Source of the DNA: Afipia sp. GAS231
GTDB lineage: Bacteria; Pseudomonadota; Alphaproteobacteria; Rhizobiales; Xanthobacteraceae
DNA: 64,000 nucleotides
Reading direction: 5' to 3'
Assembly: GCF_900103365.1 (NCBI RefSeq)
Contig: NZ_LT629703.1
Coordinates: forward strand, 7,240,501-7,304,500
The position numbers and the translations under genes were made by a program. The notes beneath the pieces are model-generated. The model was not told the origin of the DNA and made no database searches. It saw only the letters and a program-made list of their open reading frames with translations. Position 1 is the first letter of the stretch; each line of letters begins with the position of its first letter. Positions 1 through 13,520 of this stretch are shown here, one piece after another.

Positions 1-1938
1 GTCTATTTCGACAAGTCGGTGAACGAACTCACGGTGGCTGAAGCGGCTTATCTCGCGGCGATGCCGAAGGCGCCGGGCGCGCTGCATCCCGTGCGCAACC
101 GCGACCGCGCCGTCGAGCGCCGCAACTACGTGATCGATCGCCTGCTGGAAAACGGCTGGATCAAGCAGGCCGACGCCGACAAGGCCCGCAAGGATCCGCT
201 GATCGTCACCAACCGCAGCAACGGCGCGCATATCTTCGCCGGCGAATATTTTGCCGAGGAAGTCCGTCGCGACATCTTCGAGCGTTACGGCGAAAAGAAA
301 CTCTACGAAGGCGGACTGTCGGTCCGCGCCACGCTTGATCCGAAGATTCAGGTGATGGCGCGCAAGACCATGGTGGCCGGCCTCGTCAATTTCGACGAGG
401 CGACCGGCTGGCGTGGTGCGCCTTCGAAGCTGGACATCTCCGGTGATTGGGGCGTGAAACTCGCCGACATCAAATCGCTGAGCGACATCTCGCCCTGGCG
501 CATGGCCGTGGTGCTGGAGACGTCCGACCAGTCGGCACGGATCGGTTTTCAGCCGGCCCGCGAACTCGGTGGTGCGGTCAGTAAGCAGCGGCAGACCGGC
601 ATCATTGCGATCGACGGCGTGAAATGGGCCAAGGCCGCGTCGGGACCCCAAAAGGGCAAGACGCCGACCTCGGTGGCGCAGGTGGTGGCGGCGGGCGACG
701 TGATCTATGCCGATCCGCTGTTCGGCAAGGACGGCAACCCCGTCGAAGGTCAGTACCGGCTGCGTCAGTTGCCCGAAGTGTCCGGCGCGATGGTCGCGAT
801 GGATCCCTGGACCGGCCGCGTGCTGGCGATGGTCGGCGGCTTCTCGTTCGACCAGAGCCAGTTCAACCGCGCGACGCAAGCCTATCGGCAGCCCGGCTCG
901 TCGTTCAAGCCGCTGGTCTATTCGGCGGCGATGGACAACGGCTACACGCCATCAACCGTCGTGGTCGACGCCCCCATCGAAATCGACCAGGGGCAGGGCG
1001 CCGGCGTCTGGCGCCCGGAAAACTACTCGTCCGGCAAATACCAGGGGCCGGTGACGCTGCGTAACGCGCTGCGGCAGTCGCTGAACACGGTGACGGTGCG
1101 GCTGGCGCAGGACATCGGCATGCCCCTGATCGGCGAATATGCCCGGCGTTTCGGTGTCTACGACGAACTTCCGAATTTCCTGTCCTATGCGCTGGGCGCC
1201 GGCGAAACCACGGTCATGCGGATGGTCACGGCGTATTCGATGTTCGCCAATGGCGGCCGTCGCGTGAAGCCGACCTTGATCGATCGCATCCAGGACCGTT
1301 ACGGGCACACCATCTTCAAGCACGACGCCCGCGAATGCCGCGGCTGCGACGCGCCCGCCGGCTGGAAAAACCAGCCCGAGCCGCAACTGGTCGATCGCCG
1401 CGAGCAGGTGCTGGATCCGATGACGGCCTACCAGATCACGTCGATGATGGAAGGCGTGGTGCAGGCCGGTACGGCGATGGCCGTGAAGGAAGTCGGCAAG
1501 CCGATCGCCGGCAAGACCGGTACCACCAACGATGAAAAGGACGCCTGGTTCGTCGGCTTCTCGCCGGACCTCGTGGTCGGCATCTATGTCGGCTACGACA
1601 AGCCGCGCAACCTCGGCCGTGGCGCCACCGGCGGTCATCTGGCCGCGCCGATCGCCCGCGACTTCCTGAAACTCGCGCTGGCCGACAAGCCGCCGATTCC
1701 GTTCAAGGTGCCGGCCGGCATCAAGCTGGTTCGCGTCGATGCCAAGTCCGGCATGCGCGCCGGTCCCGGCGACGGCGGCCGCACTATCCTGGAAGCGTTC
1801 AAGCCGGGCACGGCGCCGCCGGATAACTACTCCGTCATCGGCGTGGCCGATGCCGACGGGCAGCGCACGATCATCCCGCAGGGCACCGCACCTGACGCCG
1901 GCAACATCATGCGGCCGGGAACCGGCGGGCTGTACTAG
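1..1938 (+). CDS. Penicillin-binding protein 1A, copy 1 (5' end outside window)
   Basis: Bifunctional class A PBP that polymerises and cross-links peptidoglycan at the inner membrane. The reading frame is open from base 1, so the N-terminal membrane anchor and catalytic part of the glycosyltransferase domain lie upstream of the window; what remains corresponds to about residue 190 onward of the neighbouring copy. The transpeptidase domain is complete: SSFK (active serine codon at 898), SLN near 1078 and KTGTT near 1513. The C-terminal tail ends in a Gly-rich RPGTGGLY. It is followed after 84 bases by a second, very similar gene, which suggests a tandem duplication. Function is certain at family level; whether both copies are needed cannot be told. 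Confidence 0.93.
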   Translation, partial: VYFDKSVNELTVAEAAYLAAMPKAPGALHPVRNRDRAVERRNYVIDRLLENGWIKQADADKARKDPLIVTNRSNGAHIFAGEYFAEEVRRDIFERYGEKKLYEGGLSVRATLDPKIQVMARKTMVAGLVNFDEATGWRGAPSKLDISGDWGVKLADIKSLSDISPWRMAVVLETSDQSARIGFQPARELGGAVSKQRQTGIIAIDGVKWAKAASGPQKGKTPTSVAQVVAAGDVIYADPLFGKDGNPVEGQYRLRQLPEVSGAMVAMDPWTGRVLAMVGGFSFDQSQFNRATQAYRQPGSSFKPLVYSAAMDNGYTPSTVVVDAPIEIDQGQGAGVWRPENYSSGKYQGPVTLRNALRQSLNTVTVRLAQDIGMPLIGEYARRFGVYDELPNFLSYALGAGETTVMRMVTAYSMFANGGRRVKPTLIDRIQDRYGHTIFKHDARECRGCDAPAGWKNQPEPQLVDRREQVLDPMTAYQITSMMEGVVQAGTAMAVKEVGKPIAGKTGTTNDEKDAWFVGFSPDLVVGIYVGYDKPRNLGRGATGGHLAAPIARDFLKLALADKPPIPFKVPAGIKLVRVDAKSGMRAGPGDGGRTILEAFKPGTAPPDNYSVIGVADADGQRTIIPQGTAPDAGNIMRPGTGGLY

Positions 1939-2022
1939 GCCCAATCGCCTGCTTGTCTGGAGCGTTCGCACCAGGACAGGCGCTGAAGGTTGCACTGCAA
2001 GAGTTGGAACGGAATTTCGGTA

Positions 2023-4515
2023 ATGCGCTTGCTGGTGCGGTTTTTTGGTTTCCTGTTCGCTGCGGGAACGGTGGTGTTTCTGGTCGGCGTTGCCGGCGCA
2101 GCCGGCGCGATCTGGCATTTCTCCAAGGACCTGCCGGACTATTCGCAGCTTCAGGATTACGAGCCGCCGGTGATGACCCGCGTGCACGCCTCCGACGGCG
2201 CGCTGCTCGGCGAATACGCCAAGGAGCGCCGGCTCTATCTTCCGATCCAGGCCGTTCCAAAGCTCGTCATCAACGCGTTCCTCGCCGCCGAAGACAAGAA
2301 CTTCTACGAGCATGGCGGCATCGATTTCTCCGGCATGGCCCGCGCCGTGGTGCTGTATGCGCAGAATTTCGGCTCGAACAGGCGTCCGCAGGGTGCCTCG
2401 ACGATCACCCAGCAGGTCGCGAAGAACTTCCTTCTCACCAATGAGGTGTCGTTCGCCCGCAAGATCAAGGAAGCGTTGCTGGCGATGCGCATCGAGCGCG
2501 CCTATTCCAAGGACCGCATCCTCGAACTGTACCTCAATGAAATCTACCTCGGGCTCGGCGCCTACGGAATCGGCGCGGCGTCGCTGGTCTATTTCGACAA
2601 GTCGGTGAACGAACTCACGGTCGCTGAAGCGGCTTATCTCGCGGCGATGCCGAAGGCGCCGGGCGCGCTGCATCCGGTGCGCAACCGCGAGCGCGCCATC
2701 GAACGCCGCAACTACGTGATCGACCGCCTCTTGGAAAACGGCTGGATCAAGCAGGCCGAAGCCGAGAAAGCCCGCAAGGACCCGCTGGTCGTCACCAACC
2801 GGTCCAACAGCGCGCGTACTTTCGCCGGCGAGTATTTTGCCGAGGAAGTCCGCCGCGACATCTTCGAGCGCTACGGCGAAAAGAAACTCTACGAGGGTGG
2901 TCTCTCGGTCCGCACCACGCTCGATCCGAAGCTGCAGGTGATGGCGCGCAAGACCATGGCCGCCGGCCTCGTCAACTTTGACGAGGCGCAGGGTTGGCGC
3001 GGTGCGATGAGCAAGCTCGATATATCCGGCGATTGGGGCGTGAAACTCGCCGACATCAAATCGCTGGCCGACATCTCGCCATGGCGGATGGCCGTGGTGC
3101 TGGAAACCAGCGACCAGTCTGCGCGGATCGGTTTTCAGCCGGGCCACGAACTGGGTGGCGCGGTCAGCAGGGACCGGCAAACCGGCCTCATCCCACTGGA
3201 CGGGGTCAAATGGGCGAAGCCGGTGGGTGCGGCACGCGGCAAGACGCAGGCCTCGGTGGCGCAAATTCTGTCGCCGGGTGACGTGATCTATGCCGATCCG
3301 CTGTTCGGCAAGGACGGCAACGTCGTCGAAGGCCAATATCGCTTGCGGCAACTGCCGGAAGTGTCCGGCGCCATGGTCGCGATGGATCCGTGGACCGGCC
3401 GCGTGCTGGCGATGGTCGGCGGCTTCTCGTTCGACCAGAGCCAGTTCAACCGCGCGACGCAGGCCTATCGGCAGCCCGGATCGACGTTCAAGCCGCTGGT
3501 CTATTCATCGGCCATCGACAATGGCTATACGCCCTCGAGCATCATGGTCGACGGGCCGATCGAGATCGATCAGGGACAGGCCGGCGTCTGGCGTCCGGAA
3601 AACTTTTCGGTCGGCAAATATCGCGGGCCCATCACCCTTCGCGAGGCTCTCAAGTGGTCGATCAACACCGTGACCGTGCGGCTGGCGCAGGACATCGGCA
3701 TGCCCTTGATCGGCGAATATGCCAAACGCTTCGGCGTCTATGACGAATTGCCGAACTATCTCTCCTATGCGCTCGGCGCCGGCGAAACCACGGTGATGCG
3801 GATGGTCACGGCCTATTCGATCTTCGCCAATGGCGGCCGCCGCGTGAAGGCGACCCTGATCGACCGCATCCAGGACCGCTACGGCCATACGATCTTCAAG
3901 CACGACGCGCGGGAATGCCGTGGTTGCGACGCGCCCGAGGGCTGGAAGAACCAGCCCGAGCCGCAACTGGTCGATCGCCGCGAGCAGGTGCTCGATACGC
4001 TGACGGCCTATCAGATCACGTCGATGATGGAAGGCGTGGTGCAGGGCGGCACCGCGTCGGTGATGCGGGAAGTGGGCAAGCCGATCGCCGGCAAGACCGG
4101 TACCACCAGCGACGGAAAGGATGTCTGGTTCGTCGGCTTTTCGCCGGACCTCGTCGTTGGTCTCTATCTCGGCTATGACAAGCCCCGCAGCCTGGGAAGA
4201 GCGGCGCAGGGCGGTCATACCGCGGCGCCCATCGCCAAGGATTTCATGAAGCTCGCGCTTGCCGACAAGCCGCCAACCCCTTTCAAGATTCCCGCCGGCA
4301 TGAGGCTGGTGCAGGTCGATCCCAAGACCGGCGCGCGCGCCAGGCCCGGCGACGGCACCAAAACCATCCTGGAGGCGTTCAAGCCGGGTACCGCGCCGAC
4401 GGATAGTTACGCCGTCATGGGCGTCGGCGCCGACGATGGCAGGCTGCTCCCGATGGGGACGCCGGGCGACGTCGGCAGCGACATCATGAGACCCGGAACC
4501 GGCAGCCTTTACTAG
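2023..4515 (+). CDS. mrcA: Penicillin-binding protein 1A, copy 2 (mrcA/ponA family)
   Basis: Complete 830-residue class A PBP. An N-terminal membrane segment (about residues 5-30) is followed by a GT51 glycosyltransferase domain with the EDKNFYEHGG motif near residue 90, and a transpeptidase domain with STFK (Ser487), SIN (546) and KTGTT (691). I chose the ATG at 2023, which gives the usual short basic N-terminus before the membrane segment and has a GGAACGGA-like ribosome site upstream; a TTG at 1990 is in frame but less likely. By eye about nine residues in ten match copy 1 across the shared part, including the tail. Likely acts in septal or side-wall peptidoglycan synthesis. Confidence 0.95.
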   Translation: MRLLVRFFGFLFAAGTVVFLVGVAGAAGAIWHFSKDLPDYSQLQDYEPPVMTRVHASDGALLGEYAKERRLYLPIQAVPKLVINAFLAAEDKNFYEHGGIDFSGMARAVVLYAQNFGSNRRPQGASTITQQVAKNFLLTNEVSFARKIKEALLAMRIERAYSKDRILELYLNEIYLGLGAYGIGAASLVYFDKSVNELTVAEAAYLAAMPKAPGALHPVRNRERAIERRNYVIDRLLENGWIKQAEAEKARKDPLVVTNRSNSARTFAGEYFAEEVRRDIFERYGEKKLYEGGLSVRTTLDPKLQVMARKTMAAGLVNFDEAQGWRGAMSKLDISGDWGVKLADIKSLADISPWRMAVVLETSDQSARIGFQPGHELGGAVSRDRQTGLIPLDGVKWAKPVGAARGKTQASVAQILSPGDVIYADPLFGKDGNVVEGQYRLRQLPEVSGAMVAMDPWTGRVLAMVGGFSFDQSQFNRATQAYRQPGSTFKPLVYSSAIDNGYTPSSIMVDGPIEIDQGQAGVWRPENFSVGKYRGPITLREALKWSINTVTVRLAQDIGMPLIGEYAKRFGVYDELPNYLSYALGAGETTVMRMVTAYSIFANGGRRVKATLIDRIQDRYGHTIFKHDARECRGCDAPEGWKNQPEPQLVDRREQVLDTLTAYQITSMMEGVVQGGTASVMREVGKPIAGKTGTTSDGKDVWFVGFSPDLVVGLYLGYDKPRSLGRAAQGGHTAAPIAKDFMKLALADKPPTPFKIPAGMRLVQVDPKTGARARPGDGTKTILEAFKPGTAPTDSYAVMGVGADDGRLLPMGTPGDVGSDIMRPGTGSLY

Positions 4516-4593
4516 AGCGTTGCGCTTTGCGGCATACGCCGCTACATCCGTCGCAACCATCCAGTGGCGGTCCAACCGCAGATCAGAGAGACC

Positions 4594-5725
4594 ATGCGCG
4601 CCGAAGTCGAACGCCTTGTTGAAGAGATCGAGCAGTCAGTCGGGCTGCTGAGGAGGCATCTTTGACGTCGATGCATCCACGGCACGCCTCGCGGAGCTGA
4701 ACAAGCTCGCCGAAGATCCCAATCTCTGGAACGATCCGCAGAAGGCCCAGAAGCTGATGCAGGAGCGCACCTCGCTGGTCGATGCGCTCGAAGGCATCGG
4801 CAAGGTCGAGCGCGAGCTCTCTGACAACGTTGAAATGATCGCGCTCGGCGAAGCCGAGAGCGATGAAGGCGTGGTCACCGAGGCCGAGAACGCGCTGAAG
4901 GCGCTGAAGAAGGAAGTCGCCCGCCGCGAGCTGGAAGCGCTGCTGTCCGGCGAGGCCGACAAGTTCGATTCCTATCTCGAAGTCCATGCCGGCGCCGGCG
5001 GCACCGAAAGCCAGGACTGGGCCTCGATGCTGCTGCGCATGTACACGCGCTGGGCCGAGAAGCACGGCTTCAAGATCGAATATCTCGAAGAGACCCCGGG
5101 CGAAGAAGCCGGCATCAAGTCCGCCACCATCCAGATCTCAGGGCACAACGCCTATGGCTGGCTGAAGACCGAAGGTGGCGTGCACCGGCTGGTGCGGATA
5201 TCGCCGTTCGATTCCAACGCGCGCCGGCACACCTCGTTCTCGTCGGTGGCGATTTTTCCGGTCGTCGACAACTCCATCAAGATCGACATCGCCGAGTCAG
5301 ACGTTCGCACCGATACCATGCGGTCGGGCGGCGCCGGCGGCCAGCACGTCAACAAGACCGAATCGGCCGTCCGGCTCACGCATATTCCGACCGGCGTCGC
5401 GGTGGTCTGTCAGGCCGGCCGCTCGCAGCACAAGAACAAGGCGCAGGCCTGGGACATGCTGCGCGCGCGCCTCTATGAAATCGAGTTGAAGAAGCGCGAA
5501 GAGCAGGCCGCCGCCGATCAGGCCGCCAAGACCGATATCGGCTGGGGCCACCAGATCCGCTCCTACGTGCTGCAGCCCTATCAGATGGTGAAGGACCTGC
5601 GCACCGGCGTGCAGACGTCGGATACGTCGGGCGTGCTCGACGGCGATCTCGATGAATTCATGGCGGCGACGCTGGCGCAACGCGCGTTCGGCACCTCGCC
5701 CGGCGCGGTCGAGGATATGGACTAA
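4594..5725 (+). CDS. prfB: Peptide chain release factor 2, with programmed +1 frameshift
   Basis: RF2 recognises UGA/UAA and triggers peptide release. Translation starts at ATG 4594, runs 23 codons to an in-frame TGA at 4663-4665, and must shift +1 to continue at GAC 4664 and finish at 5725, giving about 376 residues, normal for RF2. The shift site AGG AGG CAT CTT TGA C has the internal Shine-Dalgarno AGGAGG just upstream of CTT TGA, the classical autoregulatory arrangement. In the body, SPF (stop-codon recognition tripeptide, in [12 protein letters not shown]) and GGQ ([14 protein letters not shown], catalytic) are both intact. Annotating only the long open frame would start wrongly near 4757. 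Confidence 0.96.
4651..4666 (+). promoter_or_regulatory. prfB +1 programmed frameshift site
   Basis: AGGAGG (4651-4656), CAT, CTT (slippery codon 4660-4662), TGA (4663-4665), C. The internal Shine-Dalgarno, CUU slip codon and UGA followed by C match the known RF2 autoregulation signal, in which scarce RF2 lets the ribosome slip by one base. Confidence 0.93.
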
Positions 5726-6741: not shown

Positions 6742-6826
6742 CCGCGTCGCGAACGCGTGTCCGGGAATCGGGTGGGCATATCAGCCGCAGCGGAATAAAC
6801 CGGCGTCATTGCAGATAAGAATCGTG

Positions 6827-7732
6827 ATGATCGCTGATAACACGTCGATAGACGCCCGCGACTGGTCACTGCTCGGCCTGCTGTCGGTGCTGTGGGGCGG
6901 CTCGTTCTTTTTCAACGGCGTGGTGCTGCGAGAATTGCCGCCGCTGACGCTGGTTTTCCTGCGCGTGGCGCTCGCAACCGTCATGCTGTTGCCGCTGCTG
7001 TGGCTCTACCGGATCCGCTTTCCCAAGGGCGTGTCCGGCTGGAAGCCGTTTTTCGCGATCGGGCTTCTCAACAACGTGCTGCCGTTCTCGCTGATCGTAT
7101 TCGGGCAGACCTATATCCCAAGCGGGCTGGCTTCGATTCTCAATGCCACGACGCCGTTGTTCACCGTCATGGTGATGGCCGTGCCCGGCGAGGAGAAGTT
7201 GAAGTCGCACCGGATTGCGGGCGTCGTCGCGGGCCTGATCGGCGTAGCCATTCTGCATGGCAACGGCCTCGGGTTCGAGAGCGGGCAGGGTTTTGGCATC
7301 CTGCTCTGTCTTGCGGCGGCCCTCAGCTACGGATTGTCGGCGCTGGTGGCACGGCGGTGGCTTGCGAACTCGCCGCCGCTTGGCACCGCGACATTCCAGA
7401 TGCTGGCCTCGGCCGTGATGATGACTGTTGTCGCCGGACTGATCGAACGTCCCTGGCAATTGCCGATGCCGTCCGCCGTGACCTGGCTCGCGGTGATCGG
7501 TCTCGCGGCCCTGTCGACCGCGCTCGCCTACATCGTATTCTTTCAGATCCTGCGACGTTCCGGCGCCACCAACGTCATGCTGGTGACGCTCCTGATCCCG
7601 GTGACCGCGATCCTGCTCGGCTATCTCGTGCTGGGCGAAAAGATATCCGCGCAGGAGATTGCCGGCGCGCTGGTGATCGGCAGCGCGCTGTTGTTGATCG
7701 ATGGACGGGTTCTGAAATTCTTTCAGGGTTAG
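6827..7732 (+). CDS. EamA/DMT-family membrane transporter
   Basis: About 301 residues with ten predicted hydrophobic helices in two EamA repeats. The first carries LLSVLWGGSFFFNGV and LVFLRVALATVMLL; the second repeats the pattern from about residue 155. The C-terminal helix TLLIPVTAILLGYLVLGEKIS is characteristic of drug/metabolite exporters. The ATG at 6827 was preferred over upstream TTG 6809 and GTG 6824 because it removes a non-family extension, but the choice is uncertain. Probably an inner-membrane metabolite exporter; the substrate is unknown. Confidence 0.88.
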   Translation: MIADNTSIDARDWSLLGLLSVLWGGSFFFNGVVLRELPPLTLVFLRVALATVMLLPLLWLYRIRFPKGVSGWKPFFAIGLLNNVLPFSLIVFGQTYIPSGLASILNATTPLFTVMVMAVPGEEKLKSHRIAGVVAGLIGVAILHGNGLGFESGQGFGILLCLAAALSYGLSALVARRWLANSPPLGTATFQMLASAVMMTVVAGLIERPWQLPMPSAVTWLAVIGLAALSTALAYIVFFQILRRSGATNVMLVTLLIPVTAILLGYLVLGEKISAQEIAGALVIGSALLLIDGRVLKFFQG

Positions 7733-8056
7733 GCGTGGACAAGGCATACGCCGCGCAGTTCCCATTCGGAACTGGGCAAAGCCCACCGGTTCCCGGTGGC
7801 GGGTCTTCAGCCGTCACGCTTGCTTTGCAGAAGACAGCATTGCGGCCCAACGTGATGAGGTTGGTGGGCATGATGAGCTGGGGTGTTGGCAGGCCCGGCA
7901 ACCAAGTCTGACATATTGTGGATGGTGCATTTGTGCGGCTTATGGAAAGTGCACTTGTGCGGTGCACAATTCCATTGTTCAAAGCTGTGGAAAAGCGAGA
8001 CAAATCCGTTGATTTTGCTAAACTTCATTTGTTGTAACAACTTATGGAGTGTTCGT
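7733..8056. other. Intergenic region with short repeats
   Basis: No convincing gene. Contents visible: a 7-bp stem (CCACCGG/CCGGTGG, about 7784-7800) without a T-tract, a direct repeat GTGCA(T/C)TTGTGCGG at 7925-7938 and 7949-7962 (24-base period), and an AT-richer stretch with TTGTTGTAACAA just before the next gene, likely its promoter region. Confidence 0.5.
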
Positions 8057-8500
8057 ATGAGTGTTAGTACAGACGTCCTAACCCGTACCCCATTTGAGTT
8101 GGATCAATTGGAGCGCGAAATCAAAGGCACGGTGGGTCCATATCGGCCGCGCGGCGCGGTTCGGCCGCTCTCGCCGATGCCGGACTACGTCGCGCACCGG
8201 AACGGCGTCAACGAGGTTGGCAAGCTGTCGGCCGAGGCCGTGGTGCGCGAATACGAAGCGGCGGTGAATGAGATCGAGGCCCTCGGAACGGAACTGCAGG
8301 ACGCCGCCAACAAATGCGAGGCAATGGTGGCAGGCGTCCATAACGTGGTCGCCGAAATCAAGGAGATCGCTGCAGGGTATCGCGACCAGGGCAAGCGTTA
8401 CTTCCTGCAGATCGAGGCCGTTTCGTTGATGACAACAGAAGTTCGGAACACCTGCGAAAATCTCAAGAAGAAGATCGCGGCCGAGACATTGACCCAGTGA
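8057..8500 (+). CDS. Hypothetical coiled-coil protein
   Basis: A 147-residue protein of unrecognised family. The N-terminal 60 residues are Pro/Arg-rich (GPYRPRGAVRPLSPMPDY). From about residue 58 it is predicted almost entirely helical with heptad-like spacing (EYEAAVNEIEALGTELQDA), ending in a Lys-rich segment. It has no signal peptide or membrane segment. The ATG at 8057 follows a TATGGAGTGTTCGT leader with a GGAG ribosome site; the frame remains open upstream to 7883, but that part does not look coding. Likely a cytoplasmic structural or chemotaxis-associated protein, but I do not recognise it. Confidence 0.7.
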   Translation: MSVSTDVLTRTPFELDQLEREIKGTVGPYRPRGAVRPLSPMPDYVAHRNGVNEVGKLSAEAVVREYEAAVNEIEALGTELQDAANKCEAMVAGVHNVVAEIKEIAAGYRDQGKRYFLQIEAVSLMTTEVRNTCENLKKKIAAETLTQ

Positions 8501-8840
8501 TATTTCGGCTATGGCCGCAGCTTGTGATCAGCGGCCCGTAGTTATTGCTGTGATCGTGGGGCTAATCTGAGGTGAACGGTGTTGCGCCATCCCCGCGCCT
8601 AAATGTGGTTTGTTCTATTCAATACCCAAGTCGCTCGACGTCTTGCCCCCGCTTCGGCGGGGGTTTTTTCTGGTCATGAGAGGGACAATTACTGCGCGCG
8701 GCAAGGTAATCGAGTGACCGGGCACTTCCGTTCATGGCCCCTTTTCGGACCTGAGGCGATGTCCGATGTGAGTCCGCAATACCAGGGATAGCGGACATGA
8801 ATCGAGTTCGCGCACTAACCTCGATTGATGAGTACACGCC
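8501..8840. other. Gene-poor spacer
   Basis: No credible protein gene. It contains the strong terminator at 8646-8669. The remainder, up to the carbamoyltransferase remnant, shows no feature I can name; a weak resemblance to the sequence downstream of the intact carbamoyltransferase (11290-11350) is visible next to 8840. Confidence 0.5.
8646..8669 (+). terminator. Rho-independent terminator with UUCG loop
   Basis: Perfect 7-bp stem CCCCCGC/GCGGGGG closed by TTCG and followed by six T residues. It is a very strong terminator. It lies about 145 bases after the stop of the coiled-coil gene, so it ends that transcript or an unannotated small RNA. Confidence 0.88.
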
Positions 8841-8947
8841 CTAGCTGGCGCGGCTCGATTTCCACGCCGCATACCAGCCGGTGAATCGCCCGCTGTCGCG
8901 CTCGCCGGTAAAGGCGCCACGGTCGTGAATGACCCGGGCAAGTCTTG
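8841..8947 (-). pseudogene. Remnant of a carbamoyltransferase 3' end
   Basis: Read on the minus strand this encodes GERDSGRFTGWYAAWKSS and a stop, closely matching the C-terminus of the intact carbamoyltransferase 2.5 kb away (GERDSGRFTGWHPAWKSG). Over the first 67 bases (8841-8907) I count 58 identities with 11352-11418, about 87 percent. Similarity fades beyond that and TGA codons interrupt the frame just upstream near 8955, so only a fragment is left. Either a decayed paralogue or a duplication linked to arrival of the cassette in between. Confidence 0.75.
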
Positions 8948-9028: not shown

Positions 9029-9664
9029 TCAAAAGTTGCTGTCAACCAGAGTCATTCCGCCGGATTGATCGGTACGCCAGCTCACCACCAGGAACTTCGG
9101 CCTGCCGAGCGCCTGCGCCGCAGATCGAGCAGCACTTTCAGATCGAAACACTGGCGTGAGCTTGAGTTCACAATGCGCGACATTGGTGTCGACCCCGCCG
9201 CCAATGAATAGCTCCATCGAATCGCTGATTCCCATGTTGGCTAGCAGCTGCTGCAGTGCGCCGGTTGCGGCTTGCATGGCCGCGGCGGGATCATCGAAAT
9301 GGGTTTGAAATCCGATCGACAAATCGATGATGAGCAGCACGGCACTGAAGATCGCGCCGCCGAACGCCTTGTGAAACAACTCCCTGCCGATCGTGATAGC
9401 CTCAAATCCCGCTGGGGTCAGGTCGAGCCCCGGGGGGCGCTCGGCATTGAGATCGACGCAGGCATCCGGAAAGACGTCCAAGCCGTTGGTTGCCGCGTCC
9501 TGCCCGGCTGCAACGCCCTGTTGAAAGGCGTCGGTGTCCTCGACATCGCCGGGCGTCGGTAGCGAGGCCGGCGGGCCTTGGAAGCCAAAGGCGAACCCGC
9601 GCCCCCAACTTCGCGATTGCGGGCTTTCCACTTGTGGTGGGAGCAGAAACGGATTCTCAAGCAT
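9029..9664 (-). CDS. Unrecognised 211-aa protein, partner of the MACPF-like gene
   Basis: I do not recognise the family. The N-terminus is Pro-rich with SWGRGFAFGFQGPP and DAFQQGVAAGQDAA. A hydrophobic stretch (AFGGAIFSAVLLIIDLSIGF, about residues 98-117) may be a membrane segment or buried helix, and the C-terminal 60 residues look like an alpha/beta fold ending SGGMTLVDSNF. The start at 9664 has an ideal AGGAGG five bases upstream; an in-frame TTG at 9721 is less likely. It lies about 60 bases downstream of the MACPF-like gene on the same strand, so the two are probably cotranscribed and may form a toxin/accessory pair. Function unknown. Confidence 0.75.
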   Translation of the reverse strand: MLENPFLLPPQVESPQSRSWGRGFAFGFQGPPASLPTPGDVEDTDAFQQGVAAGQDAATNGLDVFPDACVDLNAERPPGLDLTPAGFEAITIGRELFHKAFGGAIFSAVLLIIDLSIGFQTHFDDPAAAMQAATGALQQLLANMGISDSMELFIGGGVDTNVAHCELKLTPVFRSESAARSAAQALGRPKFLVVSWRTDQSGGMTLVDSNF

Positions 9665-9724
9665 GGGTGCCTCCTGGTGCGGCGTCGAGAAAGGCGCATG
9701 ACAAGGTAGACCGCCGGCCAATGG

Positions 9725-11017
9725 CTAGGTGTCGTGCGGGCCCGGGTTTCTTTGAATGGTGACGGTGACGGACGAGCCCCTGGGCACTAAGCTGCCCGGC
9801 GGAGGGCTGATGCCCATCACATCGCCCATACTGCCATGGCCAATGAGCGAGAATACCTCGATCAAACTGAGCCCCAGCGCAGGCGCAGAATCTGGCCCCT
9901 CTTCGGCATCGCGCATCCCGCTCCAATTCGGAATCGTCACTGGCGCGGTGTTGAAGGGCTTCTTTCTGAAGTTCAGGGGTGGCGGTGCCGGGTTGGCGAC
10001 GAACATCTGCGGTGGGTCCATCTTTCCGGTCGACACCTTGATGGCGTGCGCCATCAAGCCATTCAGTGCGCCTCGATATTGACCCTGGAATTTCAGCAGA
10101 TCCGTCTGTGGCGGCAGGTTCTCGAAAAACAAGTCCGCGTTCTCGCTGAGCAGGAAATCGAGGTCCGATAAGGCTTTGAGAAAACCCATCTTCTGATTGA
10201 AGCAGTCCTGCAGCACCAGCTGGCGATCTTCACGCTCTTCCGCCGTGGGTATCGGAATCGGAATGATGTCGTAGCTTGCGATCTCCACTTCGAAGCCGAC
10301 CGGATGGTCGTGGACGGAGGCCGGAAAATCGCTCAGCCGCTGGAGGATTTTGGTTGCGTCGGGGCCCGTGAACGAGGCCTGACCGCCGATGCCACCCGCT
10401 TGGCTCATGAAGACCGTAACTTCGGTGCGGTTGTTCGTGTCCCGCATCGCCTGATTGAACGACGCTTGGAACGAGCCGCTGGCCACCAGCCCGTTGTATT
10501 CAGCATGCAGGCTCGCGCTCAGGCTACTCTGGTGTTCCTCGCTCACCGAAGTGATCCGTGCCACCACATCGAATTCACCGCCCGTCTTCAGCGAGCGTAC
10601 GAACATGTCGCCGAACGCGGTCTTGAAATCGTCCATGCGTTGCGCTCTTACCAAGGCTGATGCGTCGTCGTTCAGCTTGAAGCCGTGGCCATGTCGAATC
10701 GCATTCTGCACATTGCAGCGGCCCGCGATGAACGATGAAAATGAGTTGACCGCATGCTGCTGAGCGAAATCAAACTTTGCGCCCCCAGAAAACAGGCCAT
10801 AGCGCACGTCCATCGACGCGGAAATCCCGAGCGACTCCATCAGGCTTTCCTGCGAGGTGACGCTTTCGAAAATCGTCGTCACCTGCTGGCCGTTTGCGGC
10901 CGGGTCTTCGGCGATGTTGGTGACGTCCAGCGCAGTGCCGATGCTTTCGCGGGTTTCGGTGTTGTAGCCTTGGCCGATTTCCTGTCCGTCATAGGGAATC
11001 ATTATCACTTGTGACAT
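9725..11017 (-). CDS. MACPF/CDC-superfamily-like protein with C-terminal PASTA-like domain
   Basis: A 430-residue protein. The N-terminal region (GQGYNTETRESIGTAL, then GISASMDVRYGLFSGGAKFDF) and the core FGDMFVRSLKTGGEFDVVAR (residues 135-154), followed by SLHAEYNGLVASGSF and a strand pair ending SYDIIPIPIP (249-257), resemble the MACPF/perforin-like fold seen in fungal, fish-toxin and scattered bacterial proteins. Residues 260-330 are helical. The end (about 359-423) fits a PASTA domain: VTIPNWSGM ... PPPGSLVPRGSSVTVTI. There is no signal peptide. It may be a pore-forming or membrane-binding protein; PASTA units bind peptidoglycan or beta-lactams in other proteins. Family assignment is by pattern recognition only. 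Confidence 0.6.
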   Translation of the reverse strand: MSQVIMIPYDGQEIGQGYNTETRESIGTALDVTNIAEDPAANGQQVTTIFESVTSQESLMESLGISASMDVRYGLFSGGAKFDFAQQHAVNSFSSFIAGRCNVQNAIRHGHGFKLNDDASALVRAQRMDDFKTAFGDMFVRSLKTGGEFDVVARITSVSEEHQSSLSASLHAEYNGLVASGSFQASFNQAMRDTNNRTEVTVFMSQAGGIGGQASFTGPDATKILQRLSDFPASVHDHPVGFEVEIASYDIIPIPIPTAEEREDRQLVLQDCFNQKMGFLKALSDLDFLLSENADLFFENLPPQTDLLKFQGQYRGALNGLMAHAIKVSTGKMDPPQMFVANPAPPPLNFRKKPFNTAPVTIPNWSGMRDAEEGPDSAPALGLSLIEVFSLIGHGSMGDVMGISPPPGSLVPRGSSVTVTIQRNPGPHDT

Positions 11018-11351
11018 GGCGATAGCCTCACTGCTCTGTTGCTAGGTCCGTGCCGGGACTTCGCCGATCCGCCAGCGGAATTTCCTATCGAACAAGCCTA
11101 CGCCCATCGGCTATTCTCGACTGTGAGCCAGCTAACAGTCCGGAAAATTGGTGCAGTCCGCCGTACTCGCCGCCGCATTTTCTATATTTCGAGCGTCGGC
11201 TCTGACAGCCGATCTTCGCAATGAACACGCGGGATACCGTAATGACTTTTGGTGGCACTTCACGACATGCCGTGTCGCCGCATGGTCTCGGTCAATTTGT
11301 GAGCGAAGCGGACAATGTCGCGTCCCGCCACCAAGCCTATGGGTAAACGGC
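11018..11351. other. Spacer between MACPF-like and carbamoyltransferase genes
   Basis: No supported gene. It must hold the promoter of the minus-strand MACPF-like gene and the end of the carbamoyltransferase transcript. I found no clear terminator hairpin. The 60 bases next to 11352 weakly resemble those next to the remnant at 8841, suggesting the duplicated segment included 3' flanking DNA. Confidence 0.45.
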
Positions 11352-13520
11352 CTAGTTGGGGCGGCCGGATTTCCACGCTGGATGCCACCCGGTGAACCGC
11401 CCGCTGTCGCGCTCGCCGCCGTGCCACGCCGCAAATACCGCGCCGTCGCCGGCGACCAGCAGCACGACGTCGAGGCCTTTCGAGCGCCGCAGGGTCTCGA
11501 TCGCCTGCTGCGGCGTCTGGGCGATCGGGCCTGCGACGTTGAAGGATGTATTGACCGATACCTCCACACCGATGTGACGGCCGAGCGCCTTCAGGTAGGC
11601 GTAGGTGAGGGGATCGTCGTCTTCGCGCACGATCTGGATGCGGCCGGTGCCGTCAGCGTGAATCACCGCCGGAATCTTGTCGCGCGCCTGCGGCTTCGAT
11701 TGCGCCGTCAGCACCATGTAATTGTAGGCGTTGTAGTCGGCGTCCGACGCGCCCGGCAGCAGATCGAAATACTCCTGTGCCGCTTCCAATGTCGCCATCG
11801 GCGCCAGCGGACGTATGGCCTCGCGGTATTTGACGCGCTCGTTGAGGCGCTCGCGCACCTCAGCGTCGCAGGGATTGGCGAGGATCGAGCGGTGGCCGAG
11901 CGCGCGCGGGCCGGTTTCGGCCGCACCCTGATGCAGCGCGATCACGCCGCCTTGGGCAACCATGAACGCCATCAGATCGGCGATAGCATCGCGGCCTTGC
12001 GGGGTCGAGACGTCGCCAATGCGCTCCGAGGCAATGTCATCGGCCTTGAGGGCGGACGTGATGTCGTCGGCCGATGGCGGCAGGCCGCAATGAAACGCAT
12101 GCGTCATCGGCGCGCCGCGCGGCGCGCTTGCCAGATGCGCGAACAGCCAGGCGGCGCCGATGGTGACGCCGGGATCGCCGGGCACCGGCGGCACCCATAG
12201 ATGCAGGCGGGCCTTGCGCTGCTGCGCTTGGGCGAACCAGCCCTCGTCGAAATGTTCGAGCAGCCGCATATTGCCGATTGCGTTCAGCGCCACGCCGCCG
12301 GTCAGCACCAGGCGGCTGGCACCGGTGACGCGCAACAGATGGTCGGTGACATGGATCATCGCATCCTCGAACACCAGTTGCGTCGCCGCCGCCTTGTCGA
12401 GGCGATCCCTGGTGTCGGGGCGATGATGGATGTCCTCGACCCGCAACACCGCATCCGGATTCCAGAGCTGGTCGGGCCGGAGCGGTTCGCCGAGGATGGC
12501 GGTCAGAGCCGGCTTGTAGGGGTGATCGAAGGGATCGCAATACCAGTTGGCCATCGCGCGGTTGATCCGCACTTCGCCGCCGTCGCCGAACTGCAGGACA
12601 TTTCGTAGCCGCGCATAGTACGGATTGCTGGCGCGGTTCATGTCGCCCCAGGCGGCGGCGCCCATATAGCGGCCTTCGCTGGACAGCCAGGTCCAACCGC
12701 CCTGCGTCGACGAGATCACGCTGTAGAACGCGCCGAGTGAATCGAACATGCTGTCGTTGCAATAGAGTTTTCGCATCGCGCCGTTTTCAACGACGTAGAG
12801 CGAAATCGAGCCCTGGTCGCCGGTGCCGTCGAGCACGGCGACCGCGACCGGTTCGCCGTTCTCAGTGAACGGCGAGGCGGCATAGGAAAACCAGGCGTGG
12901 TTGTCGTGGTGTGGCAGGCAGATCAGCGGCACGCGTTCCGATAGACCAAGCTGGCGCGCCAGAATTTTCGGCGTCCGGGTCATCTGCTCGAGGCGGCGGC
13001 TCTCGAAGCCGGCGGCTTCCGTGGTGCGGAGCAGTTTCAGGCTCTGCGGCAATTCCTCGAGCACCGAGCGCGCCAGCGTGCCCGCCAGCGTCGGATAATC
13101 CCAGCTCGTCAGCCAGGCGTCGATGTCGCCGATGTCGCGGCCGATGCCGCGCAGCGCTGAGACCATCGCGTCGATCGAGGCGCGCGGATATTCTGTCGTG
13201 TGCTTGTTGCCGGAAAAGCGCTCTTCCTCGTTGTTGACGATCAGGCGTGGTCCGCGCGCGCGGGTCACCTCGACCAGCGCCACGCCGGAATTGTGCGTGC
13301 CGGGCGCGCCGAGGCCCGCGAGATAGACGGTATCGCCGCGCGAAAGTTTTTCGCGGATGGCGGCAATGCGCGCATCGGCGAATTCCGAGCCGAGTTGATG
13401 AAAGCCCGCAGCCCCCATCGTCTTCGCCGCCAGCCAGCGCGCGGCGCGGAATCCGGCGGCAGCGAGCTTTGGATGTCGCGGACCAATTCGTGGGTTCAGT
13501 TCCAACCGCGGGCCTTGCAA
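11352..13520 (-). CDS. Carbamoyltransferase, NodU/CmcH family
   Basis: About 690-722 residues. The N-terminal Kae1-like/ASKHA half has AGLGAPGTHNSGVALVE, the metal-binding His motif LPHHDNHAWFSYAASPF and VAVLDGTGDQGSISLY. The C-terminal YrdC-like half has GAAETGPRALGHRSILANP and NTSFNVAGPIAQTP. The family transfers carbamoyl from carbamoyl phosphate to hydroxyls of nodulation factors, antibiotics or glycans; this one is not obviously a nod gene, since no nod neighbours are present. The start is uncertain: TTG 13520 gives the longest product, ATG 13418 a shorter one that loses part of a plausible helix. A second copy of its 3' end lies at 8841. Confidence 0.9.
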   Translation of the reverse strand: MQGPRLELNPRIGPRHPKLAAAGFRAARWLAAKTMGAAGFHQLGSEFADARIAAIREKLSRGDTVYLAGLGAPGTHNSGVALVEVTRARGPRLIVNNEEERFSGNKHTTEYPRASIDAMVSALRGIGRDIGDIDAWLTSWDYPTLAGTLARSVLEELPQSLKLLRTTEAAGFESRRLEQMTRTPKILARQLGLSERVPLICLPHHDNHAWFSYAASPFTENGEPVAVAVLDGTGDQGSISLYVVENGAMRKLYCNDSMFDSLGAFYSVISSTQGGWTWLSSEGRYMGAAAWGDMNRASNPYYARLRNVLQFGDGGEVRINRAMANWYCDPFDHPYKPALTAILGEPLRPDQLWNPDAVLRVEDIHHRPDTRDRLDKAAATQLVFEDAMIHVTDHLLRVTGASRLVLTGGVALNAIGNMRLLEHFDEGWFAQAQQRKARLHLWVPPVPGDPGVTIGAAWLFAHLASAPRGAPMTHAFHCGLPPSADDITSALKADDIASERIGDVSTPQGRDAIADLMAFMVAQGGVIALHQGAAETGPRALGHRSILANPCDAEVRERLNERVKYREAIRPLAPMATLEAAQEYFDLLPGASDADYNAYNYMVLTAQSKPQARDKIPAVIHADGTGRIQIVREDDDPLTYAYLKALGRHIGVEVSVNTSFNVAGPIAQTPQQAIETLRRSKGLDVVLLVAGDGAVFAAWHGGERDSGRFTGWHPAWKSGRPN

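What the first reader, a model, noticed from the sequence alone, without database searches (positions are those of the whole stretch)
9725..11017. MACPF-like protein fused to a PASTA-like domain in a rhizobial-type genome
Residues 1-257 show a recognisable pattern of the MACPF/perforin-like superfamily (GQGYNTETRESIGTAL, FGDMFV..L..GGEF, SLHAEYNGL), and the last 65 residues fit a PASTA domain (VTIPN..GM ... PPPGSLVPRGSSVTVTI). PASTA units are best known from Gram-positive serine/threonine kinases and PBPs, so joining one to a pore-forming-like fold in an alphaproteobacterium without a signal peptide is unusual. It could be a membrane-acting effector targeting bacteria or a eukaryotic host, or an internal structural protein. 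The domain calls are by eye.
Basis: partly seen in the sequence, partly recalled or inferred. Interest (0 to 1): 0.72.

Follow-up and report, generated by a model that had tools for sequence, protein, structure and literature searches.

The report
Pore-forming protein with swappable tail
A soil bacterium carries a perforin-like protein whose membrane-punching core is shared with relatives in distant bacteria but whose tail differs from relative to relative, which looks like a re-aimable weapon with a helper gene beside it.

The parts
9725..11017 (-). MACPF-core / helical linker / PASTA protein, 430 aa
10253..11017 (-). MACPF/CDC-fold domain, residues 1-255
   Evidence: Foldseek; second aligner (model range about 5-255)
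10739..10858 (-). TMH1-equivalent segment, residues 54-93 (between strands 45-53 and 94-104)
   Evidence: secondary structure; beta moment reached by 1 of 300 shuffles
10577..10615 (-). MACPF-signature-like motif FGDMF-x6-GG, residues 135-147
   Evidence: relaxed motif in 99 of 99 aligned members, strict motif in 0 of 99
10427..10546 (-). TMH2-equivalent segment, residues 158-197
   Evidence: beta moment reached by 10 of 300 shuffles
9968..10252 (-). conserved helical linker, residues 256-350
   Evidence: helices 259-289 and 304-329; conserved columns in A1
9743..9949 (-). PASTA-fold tail, residues 357-425; the part that differs between relatives
9029..9664 (-). partner gene, 211 aa, unnamed family, ATG at 9664
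   Evidence: 132 proteins at E<=0.001, itself included; linkage; start and AGGAGG read
9670..9675 (-). Shine-Dalgarno-like AGGAGG of the partner
   Evidence: read directly from the sequence printed
9308..9364 (-). hydrophobic segment of the partner, residues 101-119
   Evidence: 19-residue Kyte-Doolittle maximum at least 1.6 in 87 of 87 aligned partners; the MACPF set reaches 1.6 in 9 of 99
8840..8907 (.). left copy of the direct repeat (matches the 3' end of the carbamoyltransferase gene)
   Evidence: 59 of 68 identical to the right copy
11351..11418 (.). right copy of the direct repeat, in the intact 3' end of the carbamoyltransferase gene
11352..13520 (-). carbamoyltransferase gene at whose 3' end the pair sits
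   Evidence: Pfam Carbam_trans_N/C; matches of at least 1957 of 2101 bases in 30 of 60 same-genus genomes, own included
6809..7732 (+). EamA-type transporter gene, the other neighbour of the insertion
   Evidence: Pfam EamA 3e-44

Best explanation
The gene encodes a MACPF/CDC-superfamily pore-forming protein of a branch found mostly outside the classic MACPF annotation. The core (residues 1-255) most likely assembles into rings and unfolds its two helical segments (54-93, 158-197) into membrane-spanning beta-hairpins. The tail behind a proline-rich hinge (here PASTA) most likely binds the target surface and is exchanged between relatives to change the target; a PASTA tail would suit cell-wall ligands. 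The co-encoded 211-aa protein with a conserved hydrophobic segment is a functional partner in part of the family: a second membrane component, or a guard that protects the producer. Shown here by computation: fold, hairpin amphipathicity, tail exchange, insertion, and partner linkage (partly indirect). Inferred: pore formation, tail as target binder, release by lysis or an unknown route, partner role.
For: Fold. The order of elements in the model is that described for Bth-MACPF in PMC2954219 (passages read): strand, TMH1, strand, motif strand, TMH2, strand 198-207, helical insertion 221-237, strand 240-248. Hairpin amphipathicity: TMH1 1 of 300 and TMH2 10 of 300 shuffles as high; five other segments 113 to 203 of 300. 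G136, G146, G147 in 99 of 99. Tail exchange: 25 BLAST clusters among the 95 of 99 tails that have 30 aa or more; at least 7 changes among four tail classes where 3 is the least possible; P0009 core 296 of 353 identical, tail 9 of 68 aligned positions; GON, beta/gamma-crystallin and LRR tails, hemopexin. Precedent: for BSAP-1 the C-terminal domain alone drives receptor recognition, PMC12853789 (abstract, passages and section 9 read). Partner: beside the core in Dyella L007, and 11 shared contig lengths besides the window's own against 1.4 expected.
Against: The window protein has no PF01823 match and the exact MACPF signature (T/S-H) is in 0 of 99. Some MACPF-fold proteins form no pores (recalled; compare title of PMC5483515, listing). 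The TMH segments (40 residues) are shorter than the ~60 of C8 alpha, C9 and perforin, though longer than the ~30 of CDCs (PMC2954219). The best TMH2 window (0.56) is no higher than a motif-strand window (0.57) or a linker-helix window at 308-318 (0.57), so TMH2 is the weaker case. No T6SS TssK (PF05936) and no contractile sheath (PF04984) were found in the genome, so the export route is unknown. Among 11 fetched loci with long flanks the partner family is clear in 1 (L007), weak in 3 (L009-L011) and not detected in 7 (L008, L012, L013, L032-L035), so the family as a whole does not need it.
Confidence: 0.68

Rival explanations
1. Two-component pore like pleurotolysin: the partner binds the membrane first and recruits the MACPF protein; the tail only stabilises or regulates.
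For: Adjacent co-directional genes 60 bp apart with a strong Shine-Dalgarno; hydrophobic segment in 87 of 87 aligned partners; an aegerolysin plus pleurotolysin B is a known bi-component MACPF pore (abstract starts in the listing).
Confidence: 0.2
2. Toxin plus immunity: the partner sits in the producer's membrane and blocks the MACPF protein.
For: Small downstream gene with a TM-like segment, linked by shared contig lengths to cores with PASTA tails (e.g. P0003, P0004, P0016) and with GFDIG-type tails (P0028, P0029, P0083).
Against: The partner family is not detected beside LRR-tail (L012, L013), GON-tail (L035) and one GFDIG-tail (L008, tail type checked) relatives; no evidence that self-targeting happens.
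Confidence: 0.2
3. Non-lytic MACPF protein: an internal or structural protein in which the fold is kept without pore formation.
For: No signal peptide by eye; strict MACPF motif absent; perforin-like proteins with alternative mechanisms are reviewed in PMC5483515 (title and abstract start only, listing).
Against: Hairpin segments keep beta amphipathicity against shuffles; sporadic distribution and recent insertion are unlike a housekeeping protein.
Confidence: 0.15
4. Chance resemblance: neither MACPF nor PASTA is real.
For: Single-sequence searches were marginal (PDB E=0.048; PASTA under its cut-off).
Against: Structure and profile evidence.
Confidence: 0.02

Closest known systems
Bacteroidales secreted antimicrobial proteins (BSAPs)
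   Same: Conserved MACPF core followed by highly diverse C-terminal domains; for BSAP-1 that domain alone drives receptor binding (PMC12853789; abstract, passages, section 9).
   Different: BSAPs are Bacteroidota surface lipoproteins with PF01823. This family was met in Pseudomonadota and a few other phyla, shows no lipoprotein signal by eye, has no PF01823 match in the window protein, carries a conserved helical linker and PASTA/LRR/hemopexin/GON tails, and in part of the family a partner gene.
Insecticidal bacterial MACPFs (GNIP1Aa, Mpf2Ba1, Plu-MACPF)
   Same: MACPF core plus a C-terminal domain; for Mpf2Ba1 a beta-prism with the membrane-binding site (PMC10344926, passages); among the fold matches.
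   Different: Their tail is a beta-prism; no tail here matched one in Pfam. No helical linker plus PASTA is known to me for them (recalled); no insect activity is known here.
Aegerolysin / pleurotolysin B two-component pores
   Same: MACPF protein working with a small co-produced partner; pleurotolysin B is among the fold matches.
   Different: The partner here shows no aegerolysin match by sequence or fold; its model is weak.
PASTA domains of Ser/Thr kinases and PBPs
   Different: One PASTA unit on a MACPF core in a Gram-negative; no kinase or transpeptidase match and no 19-residue stretch over 1.27 on the Kyte-Doolittle scale.

Membership tests
MACPF/CDC superfamily (fold level) | Bent central four-stranded sheet with two flanking helical clusters | tested here: met
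   (45 matches at E<=0.001: 44 MACPF/CDC superfamily by title, plus 9uj0)
MACPF/CDC superfamily (fold level) | Signature skeleton aromatic-G-x-x-F/Y-x6-GG on the motif strand | tested here: met
   99 of 99 in A1; the motif Y/W-G-T/S-H-F/Y-X6-GG is quoted in PMC2954219
Pfam PF01823 MACPF | Gathering score reached; exact signature | tested here: not met
   No PF01823 hit for the window protein at E<=1; 3 of 99 members at E<=0.1, best 0.0044; L032 17.5 and L013 18.8 bits against 21.5; strict motif 0 of 99. Not filed as a PF01823 member.
MACPF/CDC superfamily (functional) | Ring-shaped transmembrane pore | not testable with these tools
   Only indirect: hairpin amphipathicity
PASTA domain | PASTA topology | tested here: met
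   30 of 99 members match PF03793 at E<=0.1; the window protein itself is 1.6 bits under the cut-off
PASTA domain | Muropeptide or beta-lactam binding | not testable with these tools
   -
BSAP | N-terminal lipidated cysteine with surface export signal | tested here: not met
   By eye: N-terminus MSQVIMIPYDGQEIG, first cysteine at residue 101. Works like, is not filed as.
Aegerolysin-MACPF pair | Partner with aegerolysin fold | tested here: inconclusive
   No aegerolysin among Pfam matches of 87 partners, no Foldseek match at E<=0.001, but the model is weak (pLDDT 74)

The most novel reading that the evidence does not exclude
A previously undescribed, horizontally moving pore-forming system of soil bacteria: a constant MACPF core plus helical linker, an exchangeable tail drawn from bacterial and animal-like binding modules (PASTA, LRR, hemopexin, GON, beta/gamma-crystallin), and in part of the family a dedicated membrane-associated partner of new fold that gates, recruits or neutralises the pore.
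Probability: 0.4. Interest if true: 0.78.

Novelty: new variant of a known kind. Interest (0 to 1): 0.62.

Why it matters
C-terminal-domain targeting of a MACPF toxin has been shown for BSAP-1 of gut Bacteroidales. The same constant-core, exchangeable-tail plan in another branch, under the Pfam MACPF threshold and, where a source names it, mostly labelled hypothetical protein or PASTA domain, would mean that re-aimable MACPF proteins are more common than annotation shows. The partner family gives a concrete test of whether some bacterial MACPFs use dedicated partners.

Full report
What is there. The ORF lies at 9725-11017 on the minus strand, 430 aa. The protein search gives 128 proteins at E<=0.001 (itself included), 120 listed, from 7998 scored candidates. 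The genome is a Bradyrhizobium: locus L002 of a same-genus genome is contained letter for letter in L012, a record titled Bradyrhizobium sp. AUGA SZCCT0283.

Could it make pores? On the alignment mean, the four strongest strand-type amphipathic windows of residues 1-353 lie within 62-75, where the model shows no strand. As whole segments TMH1 (54-93) is matched by 1 of 300 shuffles and TMH2 (158-197) by 10 of 300; five control segments by 113 to 203 of 300. TMH2 is the weaker case: its best window (0.56) is equalled by a motif-strand window and by a linker-helix window, 0.57 each. This is indirect evidence.

Tail exchange. Tails after residue 353 were cut from the 99 aligned members; 95 have 30 aa or more and fall into 25 single-linkage BLAST clusters, 18 of them single. 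Four of the single tails are only 39-47 aa, several look PASTA-like by eye, and one (P0117) looks frameshifted beside P0115, so the number of real tail types is lower. Clear types: PASTA (30 of 99 match Pfam at E<=0.1), a double repeat with GFDIG-like motifs (24 tails; P0009 without Pfam match), a ~104-aa unnamed type (13; P0044 without Pfam match), LRR (10), hemopexin (1). More distant relatives carry GON (L003, L035) and beta/gamma-crystallin (L032) tails; L035 is a weak relative (tblastn E 1e-4). On a core-only tree (quick method, 99 rows, 69 classed and 30 unclassed, with a warning that two long branches meet) the four main classes need 7 changes, the least possible being 3; starred branches force at least 2 for PASTA and 3 for the GFDIG type, while the ~104-aa type and LRR each need only 1. 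P0009 is 84% identical to the query over the core (296 of 353), with 9 of 68 aligned tail positions identical and a tail of 174 aa.

Partner. The next gene (9029-9664, 211 aa; AGGAGG before the ATG) is in a family of 132 proteins at E<=0.001, itself included. It lies next to the core gene in Dyella tabacisoli (L007, 65% identity). Between the two listed sets of 120 proteins, 12 longest-contig lengths coincide, one of them the window's own; jittered lengths give a mean of 1.4 and a maximum of 7 in 2000 trials. This is indirect, as those contigs could not be fetched. In L011, L010 and L009 a short stretch after the core carries the partner's N-terminal W..GF..GY pattern at weak scores (E 0.004, 0.01, 0.24). 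Of 11 fetched loci with long flanks, the partner is thus clear in 1, weak in 3 and not detected in 7 (L008, L012, L013, L032-L035). All 87 aligned partners have a hydrophobic 19-residue stretch at or over 1.6, against 9 of 99 in the MACPF set. Its model is middling (pLDDT 74) and has no clear fold match.

Mobility and spread. In same-genus genomes the EamA transporter gene (Pfam) and the carbamoyltransferase gene are often neighbours: of 28 genomes entered, 23 have both on one contig and strand, with gaps between matched stretches of 49-63 bp in 12, 181-438 in 3 and 1312-1377 in 8, against 3669 in the window's genome. The core-partner pair is bracketed by a direct repeat of the carbamoyltransferase gene's 3' end, 59 of 68 identical; the resident sequence of G035 matches the left copy in 59 and the right in 56 of 68, so which copy arrived is open. 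No integrase is evident among the ORFs between the copies (by eye). Relatives of the MACPF protein were found in 6 of 100 near genomes (own included; the others at 20-42% identity) and in 5 of 398 genomes of the phylum (own included); the partner in 1 of 100, the own genome. Named sources include Archangium, Streptomyces and a Leptolinea MAG, Dyella, Methylocystis, Mesorhizobium MAG and Duganella, and plasmids of Streptomyces, Paracoccus, Indioceanicola and Deinococcus.

How it most likely works. BSAPs give the precedent: the C-terminal domain of BSAP-1 alone drives receptor binding, and a network of 214 C-terminal domains was split into 12 groups, with orphans besides (PMC12853789, abstract, passages, section 9). 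The present family has the same plan in another branch. I therefore favour a pore former with an exchangeable target-binding tail (0.68). The partner's role is left open between second component and immunity. Export is unknown: no PF05936 and no PF04984 match in the genome.

Verdict. The wider pattern is a new variant of a known kind. Interest 0.62.

Noticed in passing
window 8840-8907 and 11351-11418: Imperfect direct repeat of the carbamoyltransferase 3' end brackets the MACPF-partner pair; no integrase evident between the copies (by eye).
   Followed up: partly
L025 (G035 C275) 897-5697 and 3272-3405: A related genome holds different content between the same two genes (alpha/beta hydrolase and acyltransferase ORFs, Pfam) with a partial copy of the EamA 3' end inside it: the spot may be an insertion hotspot.
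   Followed up: partly
L026 and L029 between the EamA and carbamoyltransferase genes: About 1.35 kb with a helix-turn-helix plus cupin regulator ORF (Pfam) in these two; gaps of 1312-1377 bp in 8 of 23 genomes.
   Followed up: partly
L033 6184-6645: A 153-aa protein without Pfam match starts 1 base after a short-tailed MACPF-like gene ends on an Indioceanicola plasmid; possibly a different partner.
   Followed up: partly
L032 4430-4948: LGFP-repeat protein encoded just upstream of a beta/gamma-crystallin-tailed MACPF-like gene on a Streptomyces plasmid.
   Followed up: partly
window 7883-8500: ORF of 205 aa without Pfam match in a low-GC stretch (7733-8500 GC 0.56, window 0.63).
   Followed up: partly
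P0009, P0021 tails: A ~175-aa tail made of two repeats with GFDIG-like and GPG motifs, in 24 of 95 tails; P0009 has no Pfam match.
   Followed up: no
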